Shown: positions 536 to 63,706 of the stretch, one piece after another
Position numbering within the stretch: the first letter of the stretch is position 1
Layout: each line of letters begins with the position of its first letter
Assembly (NCBI GenBank): GCA_031269935.1
Contig: JAISYL010000167.1
Location: 1 to 63,942, forward strand
Source of the DNA: Planctomycetota bacterium
Lineage (GTDB): Bacteria; Planctomycetota; SZUA-567
Direction of reading: 5' to 3'
Length of the DNA: 63,942 bases
The notes under the pieces: generated by a model
Databases searched by the model: none
Told to the model about the DNA's origin: nothing
Seen by the model: the letters and a program-made list of their open reading frames with translations, nothing else
Translations under genes and position numbers: made by a program

Positions 536-541
536 GGGACC

Positions 542-671
542 GTGAAGAAATAAAGTTTACCCGTTTAGACTTCGTTACTCGGCTCTCTCGGGGTTTTTTC
601 GCCCAACCGCCGGCGAAAAAACCCCGTCAATCCTCGCGCCTCGTTTAAACGGGTAACCTTTATTTCTTCAC
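542..671. repeat. Nested inverted-repeat element (outer 29 bp arms, inner perfect 14 bp arms)
   Basis: 542-570 GTGAAGAAATAAAGTTTACCCGTTTAGAC vs 643-671 reverse complement with 2 mismatches; inner GGGGTTTTTTCGCC (590-603) / GGCGAAAAAACCCC (612-625). Confidence 0.85.
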
Positions 672-693
672 AAACCCTTGCGCCATGGACCAC

Positions 694-14668: not shown

Positions 14669-14682
14669 TGAAAAGCCGCCTA

Positions 14683-14828
14683 AGGGTCTGTCCATAAATA
14701 ACTTATACATGTTTAGACAAGGAATCTAGTCGCGGAGGTAAATTTTCGCCCGTGGTTGGGCGAAAATTTACGAGAGCGACGTTGGTGACGCGATATAACC
14801 ATGTATAAGTTACTTATGGACGAGCCCT
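14683..14828 (+). repeat. Nested-palindrome element, family A, copy 1
   Basis: AGGGTCTGTCCATAAATAACTTATACATGTTTAGACAAGG...GGTAAATTTTCGCCC gtggtt GGGCGAAAATTTAC...CCATGTATAAGTTACTTATGGACGAGCCCT. Confidence 0.9.
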
Positions 14829-15555
14829 AAAGGTAGGGCCGTTCCGGCCTTTTGACCGGCCTGAGTTCGGGTTCCTCCAAAATCGGAATCTTCTGGCCCT
14901 GGATCCGGCGGATGGCGAATTTTCCGGTCACCCTGGCCCAGGCGTTTTCCTCAAGGGAGGCGCTTTCCGGCAAATCCACCACCAGGGCCAGGGGAATCGC
15001 GTCGGCGGCGCAGCAGGTCATGGCGAACCTGAACAACACCGGACAGTTGCGGCCCATCAATTCGGCGACCTGACGGTTGTCGGTCGTCAGCATTCCCACC
15101 ACGGCCAGCCGCCGGCCCGCATACAGATAGGGATTCTCAAAAATTTTGTCCATCGGCACTTCGGAAACCGGCTGGTTCGAAAATCCGGTCCCCGGCGGGG
15201 TTCCGGCCGCCGGGCCGTCCCCTTCGCCGGTTGATAAGCCGCCGATGAACCGGGTATTGAAGGCGTCCGACTCCAAAACCATCCCCTCGGCCCGCCAAAT
15301 GCCGTACAATGGCAGCAGCAGCAGCAAGGCTCCGGCCGCTTCCCGCAGGACGATGCCGCCGGACGGGGGTTCGCCAATCCTGGAGCAGGTGAAGAGAATC
15401 AGGATTACCGCGGCCGGCCACAGGACATGGAAAAATTCCGGGATGAGGAACATTTCGAACCGGCCGCCGGACAGGAGCCCCAGTATCGCCAGGAGCCATA
15501 CCAGGCACACCGTGAATTTATGCCACCGGCCAAAAAAGCGGAGAATGCCAGGCAT
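14827..15555 (-). CDS. TIGR03943 (DUF1980)-like membrane protein
   Basis: MPGILRFFGRWHKFTVCLVWLLAILGLLSGG...; C-terminal 'FRFAMTCCAADAIPLALVV...WARVTGKF'; partner of adjacent permease. Confidence 0.75.
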   Translation of the reverse strand: MPGILRFFGRWHKFTVCLVWLLAILGLLSGGRFEMFLIPEFFHVLWPAAVILILFTCSRIGEPPSGGIVLREAAGALLLLLPLYGIWRAEGMVLESDAFNTRFIGGLSTGEGDGPAAGTPPGTGFSNQPVSEVPMDKIFENPYLYAGRRLAVVGMLTTDNRQVAELMGRNCPVLFRFAMTCCAADAIPLALVVDLPESASLEENAWARVTGKFAIRRIQGQKIPILEEPELRPVKRPERPYL

Positions 15556-19385: not shown

Positions 19386-19886
19386 TCAGCCCGCGGGAGG
19401 GGCGCGGGATCGGCTGTTTTCGGGAAAGAAGGGGGGGGCGGCGAAAAACGCGCCGGGGAAAGCCGATAATCCAAGATCTTCAAGCCCGGGCGGGGAAAAC
19501 GCGCTCTCCGCCGGCGGATCGGTCACCAGTTGGGCCAGAACGTTGCAGACTGGGCAATCAAGGGAATCGGAGTGGGCGGGAGCGGCGCAATCCCGGCAGG
19601 GGTTGGCCAGAACCGGCGGCATCGCTTCCGTCAGGCCGGCGATCAGCGCCGGCTGGCCGCCAAGGGCAAGGGAGGGATGGTGGCAGGAAAGGGAATGCTC
19701 CTGCGCGTGGCGGGGCAGCAGGATCAGGAGCGCCGGAGCCAGGTGAACGGCGAGTCCGATCAGCCGGGAAAGCGGAAATTTTGGCCGCATCAAACCCTCC
19801 GCGTGGCGGGGCAGCAGGATCAGGAGCGCCGGAGCCAGGTGAACGGCGAGTCCGATCAGCCGGGAAAGCGGAAATTTTGGCCGCAT
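19386..19886 (-). CDS. Small Cys-motif protein (DUF2946-like) with duplicated N-terminal signal-anchor
   Basis: 'SLDCPVCNVLAQL' motif; in-frame repeat of MRPKFPLSRLIGLAVHLAPALLILLPRHAEGL; alternative inner start at 19790. Confidence 0.65.
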   Translation of the reverse strand: MRPKFPLSRLIGLAVHLAPALLILLPRHAEGLMRPKFPLSRLIGLAVHLAPALLILLPRHAQEHSLSCHHPSLALGGQPALIAGLTEAMPPVLANPCRDCAAPAHSDSLDCPVCNVLAQLVTDPPAESAFSPPGLEDLGLSAFPGAFFAAPPFFPENSRSRAPPAG

Positions 19887-19895
19887 CAAACCCTC
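19704..19895. repeat. Tandem direct repeat, 2 x 96 bp
   Basis: 19704-19799 and 19800-19895 read identical (CGCGTGGCGGGGCAGCAGG...GCATCAAACCCTC). Confidence 0.95.
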
Positions 19896-19953: not shown

Positions 19954-20098
19954 GGGGCTCGTCCAAAAATGACTTATGCAAGTTTATACCGCGTCACCAA
20001 CGCCCTTCTCGTAAATTTTCGCCCAACCCCGGACGAGAATTTACCGCCGCGACTAGGTCCCTTGTCTAAACATGTATAAGTTATTTTTGGGCGGACCT
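19954..20098 (-). repeat. Nested-palindrome element, family A, copy 2 (inverted orientation)
   Basis: GGGCTCGTCCAAAAATGACTTATGCAAGTTTATACCGCGTCACCAACG...GGTCCCTTGTCTAAACATGTATAAGTTATTTTTGGGCGGACC. Confidence 0.9.
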
Positions 20099-38974: not shown

Positions 38975-39027
38975 ATCCAATAATAAATTTTGCGCGCGCC
39001 ATAGAATTTTCTTATGGAACGGCTGCC
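38975..39027 (-). promoter_or_regulatory. Conserved 53-bp promoter block with CCATA-N9-TATGG (T-N11-A) site, upstream of FAH-family gene
   Basis: Minus strand GGCAGCCGTTCCATAAGAAAATTCTATGGCGCGCGCAAAATTTATTATTGGAT; matches 39986-40038 without gaps. Confidence 0.7.
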
Positions 39028-39985: not shown

Positions 39986-40038
39986 ATCCAATAATATATT
40001 TTTACATTGCCATACTATTTTCTTATGGAACAGTTGCC
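39986..40038 (-). promoter_or_regulatory. Conserved 53-bp promoter block with CCATA-N9-TATGG (T-N11-A) site, upstream of HMG-CoA lyase-like gene
   Basis: Minus strand GGCAACTGTTCCATAAGAAAATAGTATGGCAATGTAAAAATATATTATTGGAT. Confidence 0.7.
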
Positions 40039-50100: not shown

Positions 50101-50883
50101 CGGATAGACGAGTTGTCCCAGAAAATCCGCGCCCTGGGCCACATCAATCCCGAGGCGATTGACGAATTGGCGGAACTGGAGGCCGGAATCGAGTTTTTGC
50201 GGGTCCAAAAGGAGGAGGAGGAGGAGGCGGTAAAAACCATTCGGCAGGCGATCGAACGGCTCAACGCCGATTCCTCGGCCCGTTTCCAGGCCACTTTCGC
50301 CGCGGTCAGGGGCAATTTTCAACAAATCTTCGCCAACCTGTTCGGGGGCGGCCGGGCCGATCTGACGCTGGAGGAGCCGGCCGGGCCGGAGGCGGATCCC
50401 CTGGAGGCGGGAATCGAAATCCGCGCCCAGCCGCCCGGCAAGGAACCCAAAAGCATCTCGCTCCTTTCGGGCGGCGAAAAGGCGCTTTGCGCCGTGGCCC
50501 TGCTCCTGGCCCTGTTTCGCGCCAAGCCAAGTCCCTTCTGCGTATTGGACGAGGTGGACGGCCCCCTGGACGAGGCGAACATCGAGCGCTTCATGCGGCA
50601 AATCCGCGCCTTCGCCTCCGACACCCAGTTCATCATCATCACCCATTCGCAGCTCACCATGGGCATGACCGACGCCATTTGGGGAGTGACCCAGCGGATA
50701 GCCGGCATCAGCAACGTCCACAGCCTCAAATACGCGGAGATGGAAAGGATGAGCCGGGGAATCCCCCTTGATCCGGAATCGCCGATTGAGGAATCCGGCG
50801 GCGGCCGGGAAGCCTACGAACAGGACGAGCTTGCCGGCGCCGGGGAATCGCCGGATTCCGGGAAGCGCCTGGCCCTGGCCTAG
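47122..50883 (+). CDS. smc: Chromosome segregation protein SMC
   Basis: 'FKSFPERTVLAFDRGVTAILGPNGCGKSNIVDAVKWVLGE', hinge region, 'SLLSGGEKALCAVALLLALF', 'FCVLDEVDGPLDEAN'. Confidence 0.97.
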   Translation: MQLKSIEMFGFKSFPERTVLAFDRGVTAILGPNGCGKSNIVDAVKWVLGEKSAKNLRGGEMLDVIFSGCASRAASGIAQVTLNFDNSDHSLKTPYEEVAIRRRLNRARESEYFINNTPCRLKDIRTLFLNSGVGNSAYSVIEQGRIEELLSARPAERRVIFEEAAEISLFKSQRRETLARLERTEQILARVDDRLAEKERLLRRVSGQAAAARRHRKLANERDTLRAGFYARQRAGLTGGLENVRVRREVLKTELDGAENVLAGINLKFAELSGREGELAAGHNSLARAAGENQEALAGNQLAQANARNRLEALANDLARGEERRSELAARLERLTAQEGEIASEMPEVGERVRAIERDLGEREAFRREWLRRAQAAEAGVTELRNRLIDLNRRRHELAGEAAGREASERSRAARAEEMEARLSRLGRERDEAVRTAEAAAAEYRLAAGKFAEAAERKEALAARSRETAAEVERLLAEERAGEAEKAGLASRKSTLEDLERSLAGSYEGVRNILLAARRGEAAGRGALGRVGDLIRVPENLATALETILGSSVQDIVTETARDAQAAIEYLKRNRLGRATFLPLDRIQPRKRLLPGLDRLPGAIGEAVNLVEFDPRFAAAMEHLLAGILVVDNLDLARELSGREARGVKIVTLDGEVISPSGAMTGGIGKSPPQAGLLRRKAELEALGRELAERGGRLEATTRRREELSAALRTMAEGIADLERKMGEAGRSEAGLKQRLAASLGERDRLERESSEAGAEFQALSRGGDGQREELEGIRRELIGVEAGMAELEGEIGAGIGEQRNSREVLDSLGGEFAELSGKRSEALARLRELESRRRELAEEIAGCRGELKRPELFGEGAEGEINRLRGRLAELMGEEEALVKIRDECRAAGAEIIEQSDILRAEQERLRQAEREGQTQATRLREGLALLDRQEAEIGLRLDHVLAKAREELNLQPEELAALDGRGAEPAANAGAAAGSPLDALSDAELQARIDELSQKIRALGHINPEAIDELAELEAGIEFLRVQKEEEEEAVKTIRQAIERLNADSSARFQATFAAVRGNFQQIFANLFGGGRADLTLEEPAGPEADPLEAGIEIRAQPPGKEPKSISLLSGGEKALCAVALLLALFRAKPSPFCVLDEVDGPLDEANIERFMRQIRAFASDTQFIIITHSQLTMGMTDAIWGVTQRIAGISNVHSLKYAEMERMSRGIPLDPESPIEESGGGREAYEQDELAGAGESPDSGKRLALA

Positions 50884-50969
50884 CGGTCCGCAAAATCCAA
50901 ATCGAAGATTAAGACTTTGCGGAGAGTGCCCCCGGTTCATCCGGCGACCGCCTCCGGGGAACGGAAAAC

Positions 50970-51998
50970 ATGACTGACAAACGCGAGATTCTCCTCGCCT
51001 CACTCGACAAACAATTTTTTTTCGACAAGGGAAGGAAAAAGCGGATCGTTTCTTCACTGTGCGGCTTGCAGGCGCAATTCGCCAATAATCCCGGTCACGC
51101 CCTCCGTATCCGGGCGGACGATTTCGCCAGCGGGACCTGGCACGACGGTTTGGTGAAGACCTGGACCTTTCGTAACACTCTTCACGCGGTTAGGAAAGAC
51201 GAATTGGGATTGTTCTTGTCGGCGCAGGGCGTGCCGGATAAGTGGGACGGCGGTTGGGGGCTGCCGCCGAAAACGATGGCGCGCTGGTCGGCCTTTTTGT
51301 TGGATAAAATTGGTGAGGGGGTGTGCGACCGCGAAGCGCTGAAGATCGCGAGCCGGAAGGCTGGCATGACCGACGACGAAATGGAATGCGCCTTCCATGG
51401 TTGGGGCGGGCTCATCAAGGAAATGGCGAAGCGCGGACTTATCGCCTATGTTTCGGGAACGGCAAAACGTTTCGTGGCCTGCGGCGATGTCGCCCTCATG
51501 GATTGGGAAGAAGCTTCGGCCATACTGCTTGAGCGTTATTTTCGTTACCTCGGACCCGCCACCATGGCGGACTGCGCGAACTTCTTCGGTTGCCGCGGGA
51601 GGACGCTTCTTGAATTATTGAAAAAACGCCCGTTGCCGCTTAAATCCATCGTTTGCGAAGGGGTGGAATACTGGTATCTCGGGAAGTGGAACGCGACGAG
51701 GGAAATCCCTCCCTGCCTGTTTCTTGCCGGCTTCGATCAATTGCTCATGGCCTACAAGGACAGGAGTCGCCTAGTTGACGGGAAGCACAAATCGGATGTG
51801 GTGACGAATACCGGCATTGTTCATCCCACCGTGCTGGTTGACGGGAGCCTGAAGGCTAAATGGAGGAAGGACGGCCGTACGCTTGTCATCACCCCCTTTG
51901 CCAAGCTGACCCGCCGCCAACGCCGGCTGATTGACGATTTCGGCGGCGAGTTGTTCGGTGGCGATGTTCTACAGGTGGTTTTCAACGATGAAGAGTAA
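50970..51998 (+). CDS. Winged-helix DNA-binding protein (AlkZ/HTH_42-like DNA glycosylase)
   Basis: 'SSLCGLQAQFANNPGHALRIRADDF...LVKTWTFRNTLHAV', 'LFLAGFDQLLMAYKDR'. Confidence 0.85.
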   Translation: MTDKREILLASLDKQFFFDKGRKKRIVSSLCGLQAQFANNPGHALRIRADDFASGTWHDGLVKTWTFRNTLHAVRKDELGLFLSAQGVPDKWDGGWGLPPKTMARWSAFLLDKIGEGVCDREALKIASRKAGMTDDEMECAFHGWGGLIKEMAKRGLIAYVSGTAKRFVACGDVALMDWEEASAILLERYFRYLGPATMADCANFFGCRGRTLLELLKKRPLPLKSIVCEGVEYWYLGKWNATREIPPCLFLAGFDQLLMAYKDRSRLVDGKHKSDVVTNTGIVHPTVLVDGSLKAKWRKDGRTLVITPFAKLTRRQRRLIDDFGGELFGGDVLQVVFNDEE

Positions 51999-53703: not shown

Positions 53704-54477
53704 ATGTCGGATTGCGCGCGGGCGGTTTTGGACATCCTGCATTCGCTTCGCAGCATTCATGGGGATTTCTCCGACAGACCCGTTCCCGATGACGCCGTGC
53801 GGACAATCACGGCCGCCGCCGTTCGTGCCGCCAACGCCGGGGCTAGACAGTGCTATTCGATAATCACGGTGACCGGCATGGAGCGGGTCAAGAGCGCCTG
53901 TTGCTATCCGGCGCCCGTAGCGCTCGTTTTTCTTTCCGACCACACCCGCTTTCAAGACGAGGCGCTGCGGCGGGGTTATGGATTACGCCCATACTCACTC
54001 CATGATTTGATAACCACCGCCATCGATGCTTCGGTTGCCGGTCAAAATGCAGTGATTGCGGCCAAGGCGTTGGGTATCGATTCGCTGATAACAAACTCGA
54101 TTCTGGATCGCGTCGAGATGAACGAACTGATCGAAACACTCGGAATACCGGAGCGTGGATGCATGCCCCTGTTTGCGGTATTGTTGGGATATCCAAAAAT
54201 CGAGCCGGACCACCGCCAACAACGATACGATGGGCCGGGATTGCTCCATGCCGAAAAGTATCGCCGAATGACCGAGGATGAACGATTGGCCATGGCGTCG
54301 CAATACGACGAAGAAGGGATGGGCCTTGCCTTCGCCAAATGGCGGGAACAAGGATACCAGAGCTATTTCGACTGGTATTTCAATGCCTGGGACATCCATC
54401 CAGGCGCAAAAAACCACAAGGAACGGGATCCGGACTGGTCCGAGGACTATGCCAGGCGGGCGGGATTTATCAACTAG
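53704..54477 (+). CDS. Nitroreductase family protein
   Basis: 'HGDFSDRPVPDDAVRTITAAAVRAANAGARQCYSIITVTG', 'ATAIDASVAGQNAVIAAKALGIDSL'-type region. Confidence 0.85.
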   Translation: MSDCARAVLDILHSLRSIHGDFSDRPVPDDAVRTITAAAVRAANAGARQCYSIITVTGMERVKSACCYPAPVALVFLSDHTRFQDEALRRGYGLRPYSLHDLITTAIDASVAGQNAVIAAKALGIDSLITNSILDRVEMNELIETLGIPERGCMPLFAVLLGYPKIEPDHRQQRYDGPGLLHAEKYRRMTEDERLAMASQYDEEGMGLAFAKWREQGYQSYFDWYFNAWDIHPGAKNHKERDPDWSEDYARRAGFIN

Positions 54478-54636
54478 GGGTCTGTCCATAAATAACTTAT
54501 AATAAATAACTTATACATGTTTAGACAAGGAACCGAGTCGCGGCGGTAAATTTTCGCCCGCGGTTGGGCAAAAATTTACGGGAGCGACATTGGTGACGCG
54601 GTATAAACATGTATAAGTTATTCATGGACGAGCCCT
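54477..54636 (+). repeat. Nested-palindrome element, family A, copy 3
   Basis: GGGGTCTGTCCATAAATAACTTATAATAAATAACTTATACATGTTTAGACAAGG...GGTAAATTTTCGCCCgcggttGGGCAAAAATTTAC...AAACATGTATAAGTTATTCATGGACGAGCCCT. Confidence 0.92.
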
Positions 54637-62921: not shown

Positions 62922-63047
62922 CAAACAGGCTGTCGCGGGAATCGGCTCGGGGTTCCGGATTTCCTTCCCGGCCCCAATCCCTCCCCCTCCAGCCGGGCGG
63001 GATGCCGCCGCCAGGCCGCCTCCATCCGTTCGGGATCGCCAAAAACC

Positions 63048-63706
63048 TTGGGCATGACCGACGCAATTTGGGACGTGACCCGGCGGATAGCCGGCATCAA
63101 CCGCGTCCACGGCCTCAAATGCGCGGAGATGGAAAGGATGGGCCGGGGAATCCCCCTGGATCCGGAATCGCCGATTGAGGAATCCGGCGGTGGCCGGGAA
63201 GCCTACGAACAGGACGGGGCCGCCGGCGCCGGGGAATCGCCGGAACCCGGGAAGCGGCTGGCCCCGGCCTAGCGGTCCGCGAAGTCTGGCTCGCGGCGCC
63301 GGCTAGACGGGAAAACATGACTGACAAGCGTGAGCTTCTCCTCGCTTCATTGGACAAACAATTCTTTTTCGACAAGGGGAAGAAGAAACAGATTGTGTCT
63401 TCACTATGCGGCTTGCAGGCGCAATTCGCCAATAACCCCGGTCACGCCCTCCGCATCCGGGCGAATGATTTCGCCAGCGAGACCTGGTACGACGGCTTGG
63501 TGAAGACCCGGACTTTTCGTCACACTCTTCACGCGGTGAGGAAAGACGAATTGGGATTGTTCTTGTCGGCGCAGGGCGTGCCGGAGGAGTGGGACGATGA
63601 TTGGGGAATGCCGCCGAAAACGATGGCGCGCTGGTCGGCCTTTTTGTTGGACAAAATTAGCGAGGGAGTATGCGGTCGCGAAGCGCTGAAGACCGCGAGC
63701 CGGAAG
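63048..63706 (+). pseudogene. Partial duplication of smc 3' end and AlkZ-like gene 5' end
   Basis: Collinear with ~50660-51366; copied AlkZ-like ORF stops after 137 aa (63317-63730). Confidence 0.93.

What the first reader, a model, noticed from the sequence alone, without database searches (positions are those of the whole stretch)
14683..14828. Family A: ~146-160 bp nested-palindrome elements in three scattered copies
Copies at 14683-14828 (+), 19954-20098 (-) and 54477-54636 (+) share the same design: ~32-bp outer arms (GGGTCTGTCCATAAATAACTTATACATGTTTA ... TAAACATGTATAAGTTATTCATGGACGAGCCC), an inner stem (GGTAAATTTTCGCCC / GGGCGAAAATTTAC), and conserved asymmetric linkers (TAGTCGCGG; GAGCGACxTTGGTGACGCG). 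No ORF is carried. This fits a MITE or another non-autonomous, structure-borne repeat, with the autonomous partner not visible here.
Basis: seen in the sequence. Interest (0 to 1): 0.7.

Follow-up and report, generated by a model that had tools for sequence, protein, structure and literature searches.

The report
Mobile nested-hairpin repeats, IS5-type mini-transposons
Short non-coding mobile elements, present in hundreds of copies in this bacterial genome, insert with a 3-base duplication like the small transposons of the IS5 family, but unlike ordinary ones they carry an inner folded structure that has been preserved by matched base changes across a whole genus.

Summary
The three window copies (144 bp, GGG...CCC) belong to a family with about 105 copies in this draft genome (210 end matches). 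A fourth copy, from a sister family, lies at 536-677, and a third family (C) has about 164 matches to its core. Copies are flanked by TNA duplications (TAA/TAA, TTA/TTA, TCA/TCA). Related empty sites, one element inside another, show precise insertion with one TWA as target, so these are mobile elements. No open reading frame is carried. IS5-family insertion sequences with near-identical termini (15-16 of 17-18 bases for family C) and the same target occur in a sister species. The cognate IS of family A was not found. Covariance searches find the design in all 7 genomes of the genus and one further genus. Arms differ between families but stay paired (32 two-sided compensated pairs, 0/500 shuffles), while two internal loops stay 80-94% conserved. 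That goes beyond a typical MITE. Whether the fold works as RNA or single-stranded DNA is open: no wobble strand bias in recent copies, no orientation bias to neighbouring genes. Verdict: an IS5-type MITE superfamily with a conserved structured core; a new variant of a known kind.

The parts
14681..14683 (+). left copy of the 3-bp target duplication (TAA)
   Evidence: pattern statistics
14684..14827 (+). family A element, copy 1 (144 bp, GGG...CCC)
   Evidence: R1 147.3 bits (this copy is in the model's training set)
14684..14715 (+). outer 5' arm (terminal inverted repeat plus sub-terminal stem)
14715..14722 (+). conserved internal-loop strand L1 (AGACAAGG; consensus AGACRAGG)
14723..14733 (+). 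middle stem, 5' side
14734..14737 (+). inner 4x4 loop, 5' side (consensus GGCR)
14738..14751 (+). inner stem, 5' side (GTAAATTTTCGCCC)
14758..14771 (+). inner stem, 3' side (GGGCGAAAATTTAC)
14772..14775 (+). inner 4x4 loop, 3' side (GAGA)
14787..14796 (+). conserved internal-loop strand R (GACGCGATAT; consensus RACGNNGKAT)
14797..14827 (+). outer 3' arm
14828..14830 (+). right copy of the 3-bp target duplication (TAA)
19955..20098 (-). family A element, copy 2 (more diverged; flanks TAA / CAA)
54478..54635 (+). family A element, copy 3 (158 bp; starts right after the TAG stop of the upstream ORF; TAA on the right)
54488..54515 (+). 14-bp tandem duplication inside the left arm of copy 3
536..677 (-). 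family B element (same fold, different arms), behind the 5S rRNA gene

Best explanation
These are non-autonomous mini-transposons (MITEs) moved in trans by DDE transposases of the IS5 family (IS1031/IS427-like: GRG...TGT termini, TNA target). The transposase is inferred to bind roughly the terminal 17 bp, excise or copy the element and insert it at a TNA trinucleotide, giving a 3-bp duplication. Because TAA/TTA is a stop codon on one or the other strand, many copies sit exactly at the stop codon of a neighbouring gene, where they are harmless. Families A to F in this genome, and others in sister species, descend from one ancestor. They differ in termini and arms, probably because each lineage follows a different resident IS5 transposase. 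They keep a common folded core: outer stem, asymmetric loop AGACRAGG/ACGnnGTAT, middle stem, 4x4 loop GGCR/GAGA, inner stem. The core is most likely kept by selection on the element itself, as a folded single strand (DNA on the lagging strand, or RNA). Shown: copies, TNA duplications, related empty sites, covariation, loop conservation, IS5 elements with matching termini for family C. Inferred: that an IS5 transposase moves family A, and what the core does.
For: Copy number. TNA duplications: families A/B and relatives 40 of 56 concordant against 45% expected, p = 7e-5; family C 23 of 32, p = 7e-4. Related empty sites with a single TWA: B in a D-type element (L061), A in B (L170), A in C (L184), A in other repeats (L078, L028, L017). 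IS5-family transposases (NF033580) in G004 with termini GAGCCTGTAGACAAATTAA...TTAATTTGTCTACAGGCTC flanked by TAA/TTA, and GAGGGTGTTGTTAAATAG, against family C termini GAGCTTGTTGACAAATTG and GAGCGTGTTGTTAAATAC. An IS5 transposase in the own genome with TTA/TAA next to its end GAAAGYGTTCTTAAAAT. Covariation: 24 and 32 pairs with two-sided changes, 0/500 shuffles, slid controls far lower. Loops 80-94% conserved against about 50-70% in stem strands, with 80-91% pairing kept. Insertion at stop codons without orientation bias, 17 against 17.
Against: No IS with family A's own termini was found: the exact pattern GGGTCTGTCNADAAATAA occurs only in G000 and G002 among 393 phylum genomes, and every G000 end that I read was a MITE or a truncated or collapsed MITE. 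The genome is an 84.6% complete draft in which multi-copy ISs are easily lost. The full ISs do not contain the core, so the elements are not simple internal deletions of them. Some families in other species appear to use a 2-bp TA duplication rather than TNA.
Confidence: 0.85

Rival explanations
1. The core is a functional structured RNA (or RNA domain) spread by MITEs: the transcript's two internal loops bind a protein or another RNA, and helices vary freely as long as they pair.
For: Loop conservation with covarying helices. In families C/G001/G003 non-Watson-Crick cells inside helices are G-T rather than A-C in the + orientation (10 against 2 distinct sites).
Against: No such bias in recent copies of family A (33 against 32 distinct changes; by copies A-C 119 against G-T 83) or family C (9 against 13 sites). 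No orientation bias to neighbouring genes. No Rfam match. No expression data.
Confidence: 0.25
2. The pairing is kept without selection: hairpin-templated repair (quasi-palindrome correction by template switching) copies changes from one arm to the other, so arms evolve in concert.
For: Signs of hairpin misprocessing: collapsed one-arm elements joined at microhomology (L029, L034, L084, L054), a chimera switching from B to C at the loop (L064), arm swaps (L079).
Against: Correction should also erase the mismatched internal loops, yet these are the most conserved part in 16 family representatives. Loops are altered in some of four outlying lineages (G003 L122, G006, G004, G089) that were left out of that count.
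Confidence: 0.3
3. A REP/REPIN-type or IS200/IS605-type single-strand transposon system (Y1 transposase, hairpin recognition, no target duplication).
For: Hairpin design; conserved unpaired bases.
Against: Duplicated TNA targets and single-copy target in empty sites; long TIRs of IS5 type. A Y1/RAYT gene was not searched for.
Confidence: 0.04

Closest known systems
MITEs of the IS5 family (IS1031/IS427 groups)
   Same: Short, no ORF, TIRs, 3-bp target duplication; termini match IS5-family elements of a sister species for family C. PMC2516522 states that three nucleotides as insertion site is a feature of the IS1031 group.
   Different: Shared sequence with the full ISs is limited to the terminal ~17 bp; the inside is a conserved structured core that covaries across families. 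The cognate IS of family A was not found.
Correia elements, RUP, ERIC and similar small palindromic repeats of bacteria
   Same: 100-170 bp intergenic palindromic mobile repeats without known function (own knowledge; PMC2759123 abstract for enterobacterial RU elements).
   Different: I know of no comparable cross-species helix covariation with conserved internal loops in these. Not compared by computation.
Eukaryotic PIF/Harbinger Tourist-type MITEs
   Same: TWA target duplication and a transposase related to IS5 (own knowledge; IS5 and Harbinger groups are placed in one phylogeny in PMC12730594).
   Different: Bacterial, far shorter, with a conserved folded core.

Membership tests
MITE (non-autonomous mini-transposon) | short, no coding capacity, terminal inverted repeats | tested here: met
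   144 bp, ~32-bp arms; too short to hold an ORF of 100 aa, none of the listed ORFs lies inside it
MITE (non-autonomous mini-transposon) | high copy number with target-site duplications | tested here: met
   about 105 (A) and 164 (C) matches; TNA duplications
MITE (non-autonomous mini-transposon) | empty sites | tested here: met
   related (paralogous) empty sites; orthologous empty sites between species not resolved
IS5-family derived MITE | termini shared with an IS5-family element | tested here: inconclusive
   met for family C (G004 IS5 elements); not found for family A
IS5-family derived MITE | 3-bp TNA target as in the IS1031 group | tested here: met
IS5-family derived MITE | mobilisation by the IS5 transposase | not testable with these tools
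   needs a transposition assay
REP/REPIN, IS200/IS605 type | no target duplication | tested here: not met
   target duplications present
REP/REPIN, IS200/IS605 type | cognate Y1 transposase in the genome | not tested
known structured RNA family (Rfam 15) | match to a covariance model | tested here: not met
   no match overlapping the elements

The most novel reading that the evidence does not exclude
A genus-wide superfamily of mobile elements that share a functional folded core (RNA or single-stranded DNA) with two conserved internal loops, and that repeatedly exchange their termini to be moved by different IS5-type transposases. The selected trait would be the fold, with the terminal repeats as replaceable handles.
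Probability: 0.3. Interest if true: 0.75.

Novelty: new variant of a known kind. Interest (0 to 1): 0.5.

Why it matters
MITEs are usually taken to be passive remnants whose inside drifts. Here the inside is the best conserved part across a genus, as a fold with conserved loops, while the transposase-facing ends change. If the fold has a role in mobilisation or tolerance, it is a testable case of structure-level selection on a bacterial mini-transposon. In practice these repeats also seem to break the assemblies of this genus: at least 30 of the 100 listed family C matches lie within about 130 bp of a contig start.

Tried and rejected
Own-genome search for an IS with family A termini: none. 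DDE_Tnp_1 hits in the own genome: an IS1634 element and truncated fragments; the one IS5 element, in two copies at contig ends, has other termini. Orthologous empty site for the 14684 copy: the downstream gene was not found next to the upstream one in the genus relatives. G-T versus A-C strand test: inconclusive, differs between families. Rfam: nothing on the elements. Plasmid and phage collections: no match. An alignment of all families at once was poor in the arms, so two separate alignments were used for covariation. Literature: no report of such a core found in the held library.

Full report
OBSERVATION. The three window copies are real: 14684-14827 (+), 19955-20098 (-) and 54478-54635 (+), GGG...CCC in copies 1 and 3 and AGG...CCC in copy 2; the third carries a 14-bp tandem duplication in its left arm. 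The arm motif occurs five times in the window and never in shuffles. Copy 1 folds into one long nested hairpin (-72.3 kcal/mol, z = -9.4). A further copy of the same design with different arms (family B) lies at 536-677 (-), just behind the 5S rRNA gene.

GENOME. In the 3.36-Mb, 298-contig, 84.6% complete assembly the family A query returns 40 scored copies, all that the tool scores, at about 90% identity or more. The end motif matches 103 + 107 times with 0 in the control, i.e. about 105 copies. The core motif of a third family, C, matches 164 times (one match per element assumed). Of the 100 listed family C matches at least 30 lie within about 130 bp of a contig start, so these elements are a likely cause of the fragmentation. 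Families B, D, E and F are rarer.

MOBILITY. Flanks show direct 3-bp duplications of TNA: for families A/B and relatives 40 of 56 copies with TNA on both sides agree in the middle base (45% expected, p = 7e-5); for family C 23 of 32 (42% expected, p = 7e-4), with TAA, TTA and TCA all seen. Copies are related, so these p-values are approximate. Joining the flanks of a copy and comparing with the other loci gives precise related empty sites: B inside a D-type element, A inside B, A inside C, A inside further repeats, each with a single TWA where the filled site has two (in L028 one of the two filled-site copies is mutated). Orthologous empty sites between species could not be tested.

POSITION. 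With a simple codon-score gene call, none of 42 copies with enough flank lies inside a called gene, and 34 lie between genes of the same direction. Roughly half of those start within a few bases of the upstream gene's stop codon. Orientation relative to the genes is balanced, 17 to 17. This fits a TAA/TTA target and argues against a strand-specific role in the neighbouring mRNA.

PARTNER. No IS with family A ends was found. Each 0-mismatch end that I fetched belongs to a full, truncated or collapsed element. IS5-family transposases (NF033580) are present in four of seven genus genomes. In G004 they carry ends GAGCCTGTAGACAAATTAA...TTAATTTGTCTACAGGCTC with TAA/TTA outside (left and right end read on different contigs), and GAGGGTGTTGTTAAATAG, close to family C ends GAGCTTGTTGACAAATTG and GAGCGTGTTGTTAAATAC. 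The own genome's IS5 element ends GAAAGYGTTCTTAAAAT next to TTA/TAA, like one G001 element (L142, GAAAGTGTTATAAAATT). Only the terminal ~17 bp are shared, so the elements are not plain deletion products of these ISs.

STRUCTURE ACROSS SPECIES. A covariance model of families A, B, D, E and F (R1) finds the design in G001, G002, G003, G004, G006, in G012 (another genus of the family) and one weak case in G089 (another family of the phylum), among 101 genomes. A second model (R2, families C, G001, G003) finds all seven genus genomes and G012 among 393 phylum genomes. The other members of family, order, class and phylum searched gave nothing. Arms differ completely between families but stay complementary: 24 pairs with two-sided changes in alignment A2 and 32 in A5, 0/500 shuffles, with slid controls at 30-48% pairing against 90-91%. 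The structures were derived from the same sequences, which favours the unslid version. In 16 hand-segmented family representatives the internal loops are the conserved part (L1 AGACRAGG 91%, R RACGNNGKAT 88%, I1 GGCR 80%, I2 GAGA 94%), while stem strands are at 50-70% and pair in 80-91% of positions. I chose the segment borders, and the models favour elements with these loops, so the contrast is somewhat inflated. Four outlying lineages (L122 of G003, G006, G004, G089) were left out, and some have other loops.

WHICH MOLECULE. If the + strand RNA were selected, G-T should exceed A-C inside helices. Family A: 33 against 32 distinct changes; family C: 9 against 13; the cross-species A5 set: 10 against 2. 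The test is inconclusive. Rfam has no match on the elements.

REARRANGEMENT. Several elements have lost the hairpin between short repeats, leaving one arm plus a stub (L029 2861-2898, L034 1516-1552, L084, L054 2960-3005), one is a B/C chimera at the loop (L064), and one has exchanged ends (L079). Hairpin-templated correction could therefore account for part of the covariation. It does not easily explain the retained, conserved mismatched loops.

CONCLUSION.

Noticed in passing
G000 (whole genome), e.g. L198, L205, L210: Family C of the same superfamily is more abundant than family A (about 164 core matches), and many contigs start or end inside it.
   Followed up: yes
L064 (about 526-667) and L067 (about 180-560): Chimeric or compound elements: B joined to C at the hairpin loop; a C element between halves of an A and a B-like element.
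   Followed up: partly
L029 2861-2898; L034 1516-1552; L084 483-511; L054 2960-3005: Collapsed elements with one arm left, joined at short microhomologies: signs of hairpin deletion.
   Followed up: partly
L002 157-243; L011 1656-1778: Further palindromic repeat families (e.g. ends GATCGCGTAAGGAAATAAC) that serve as targets for family A.
   Followed up: no
L111 1501-1653 (G089): A hairpin element in another family of the phylum with ends GGGCCTGTCAAGAAATAA and TTA duplications, similar in design to family E.
   Followed up: no
window 19700-19895: A 96-bp tandem duplication (99% identical) next to the second family A copy.
   Followed up: no
window 50656-51262 and 63045-63609: Two stretches ~89-90% identical 12.4 kb apart; the first overlaps an AlkZ-like DNA glycosylase gene, the second lies near the contig end.
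   Followed up: no
window 38975-39027 and 39986-40038: A 53-bp repeat (79% identical) starting near the 5' ends of two adjacent minus-strand ORFs.
   Followed up: no
L031 907-2571: An intact IS1634-family transposase in the same genome, unrelated to these termini as far as seen.
   Followed up: no
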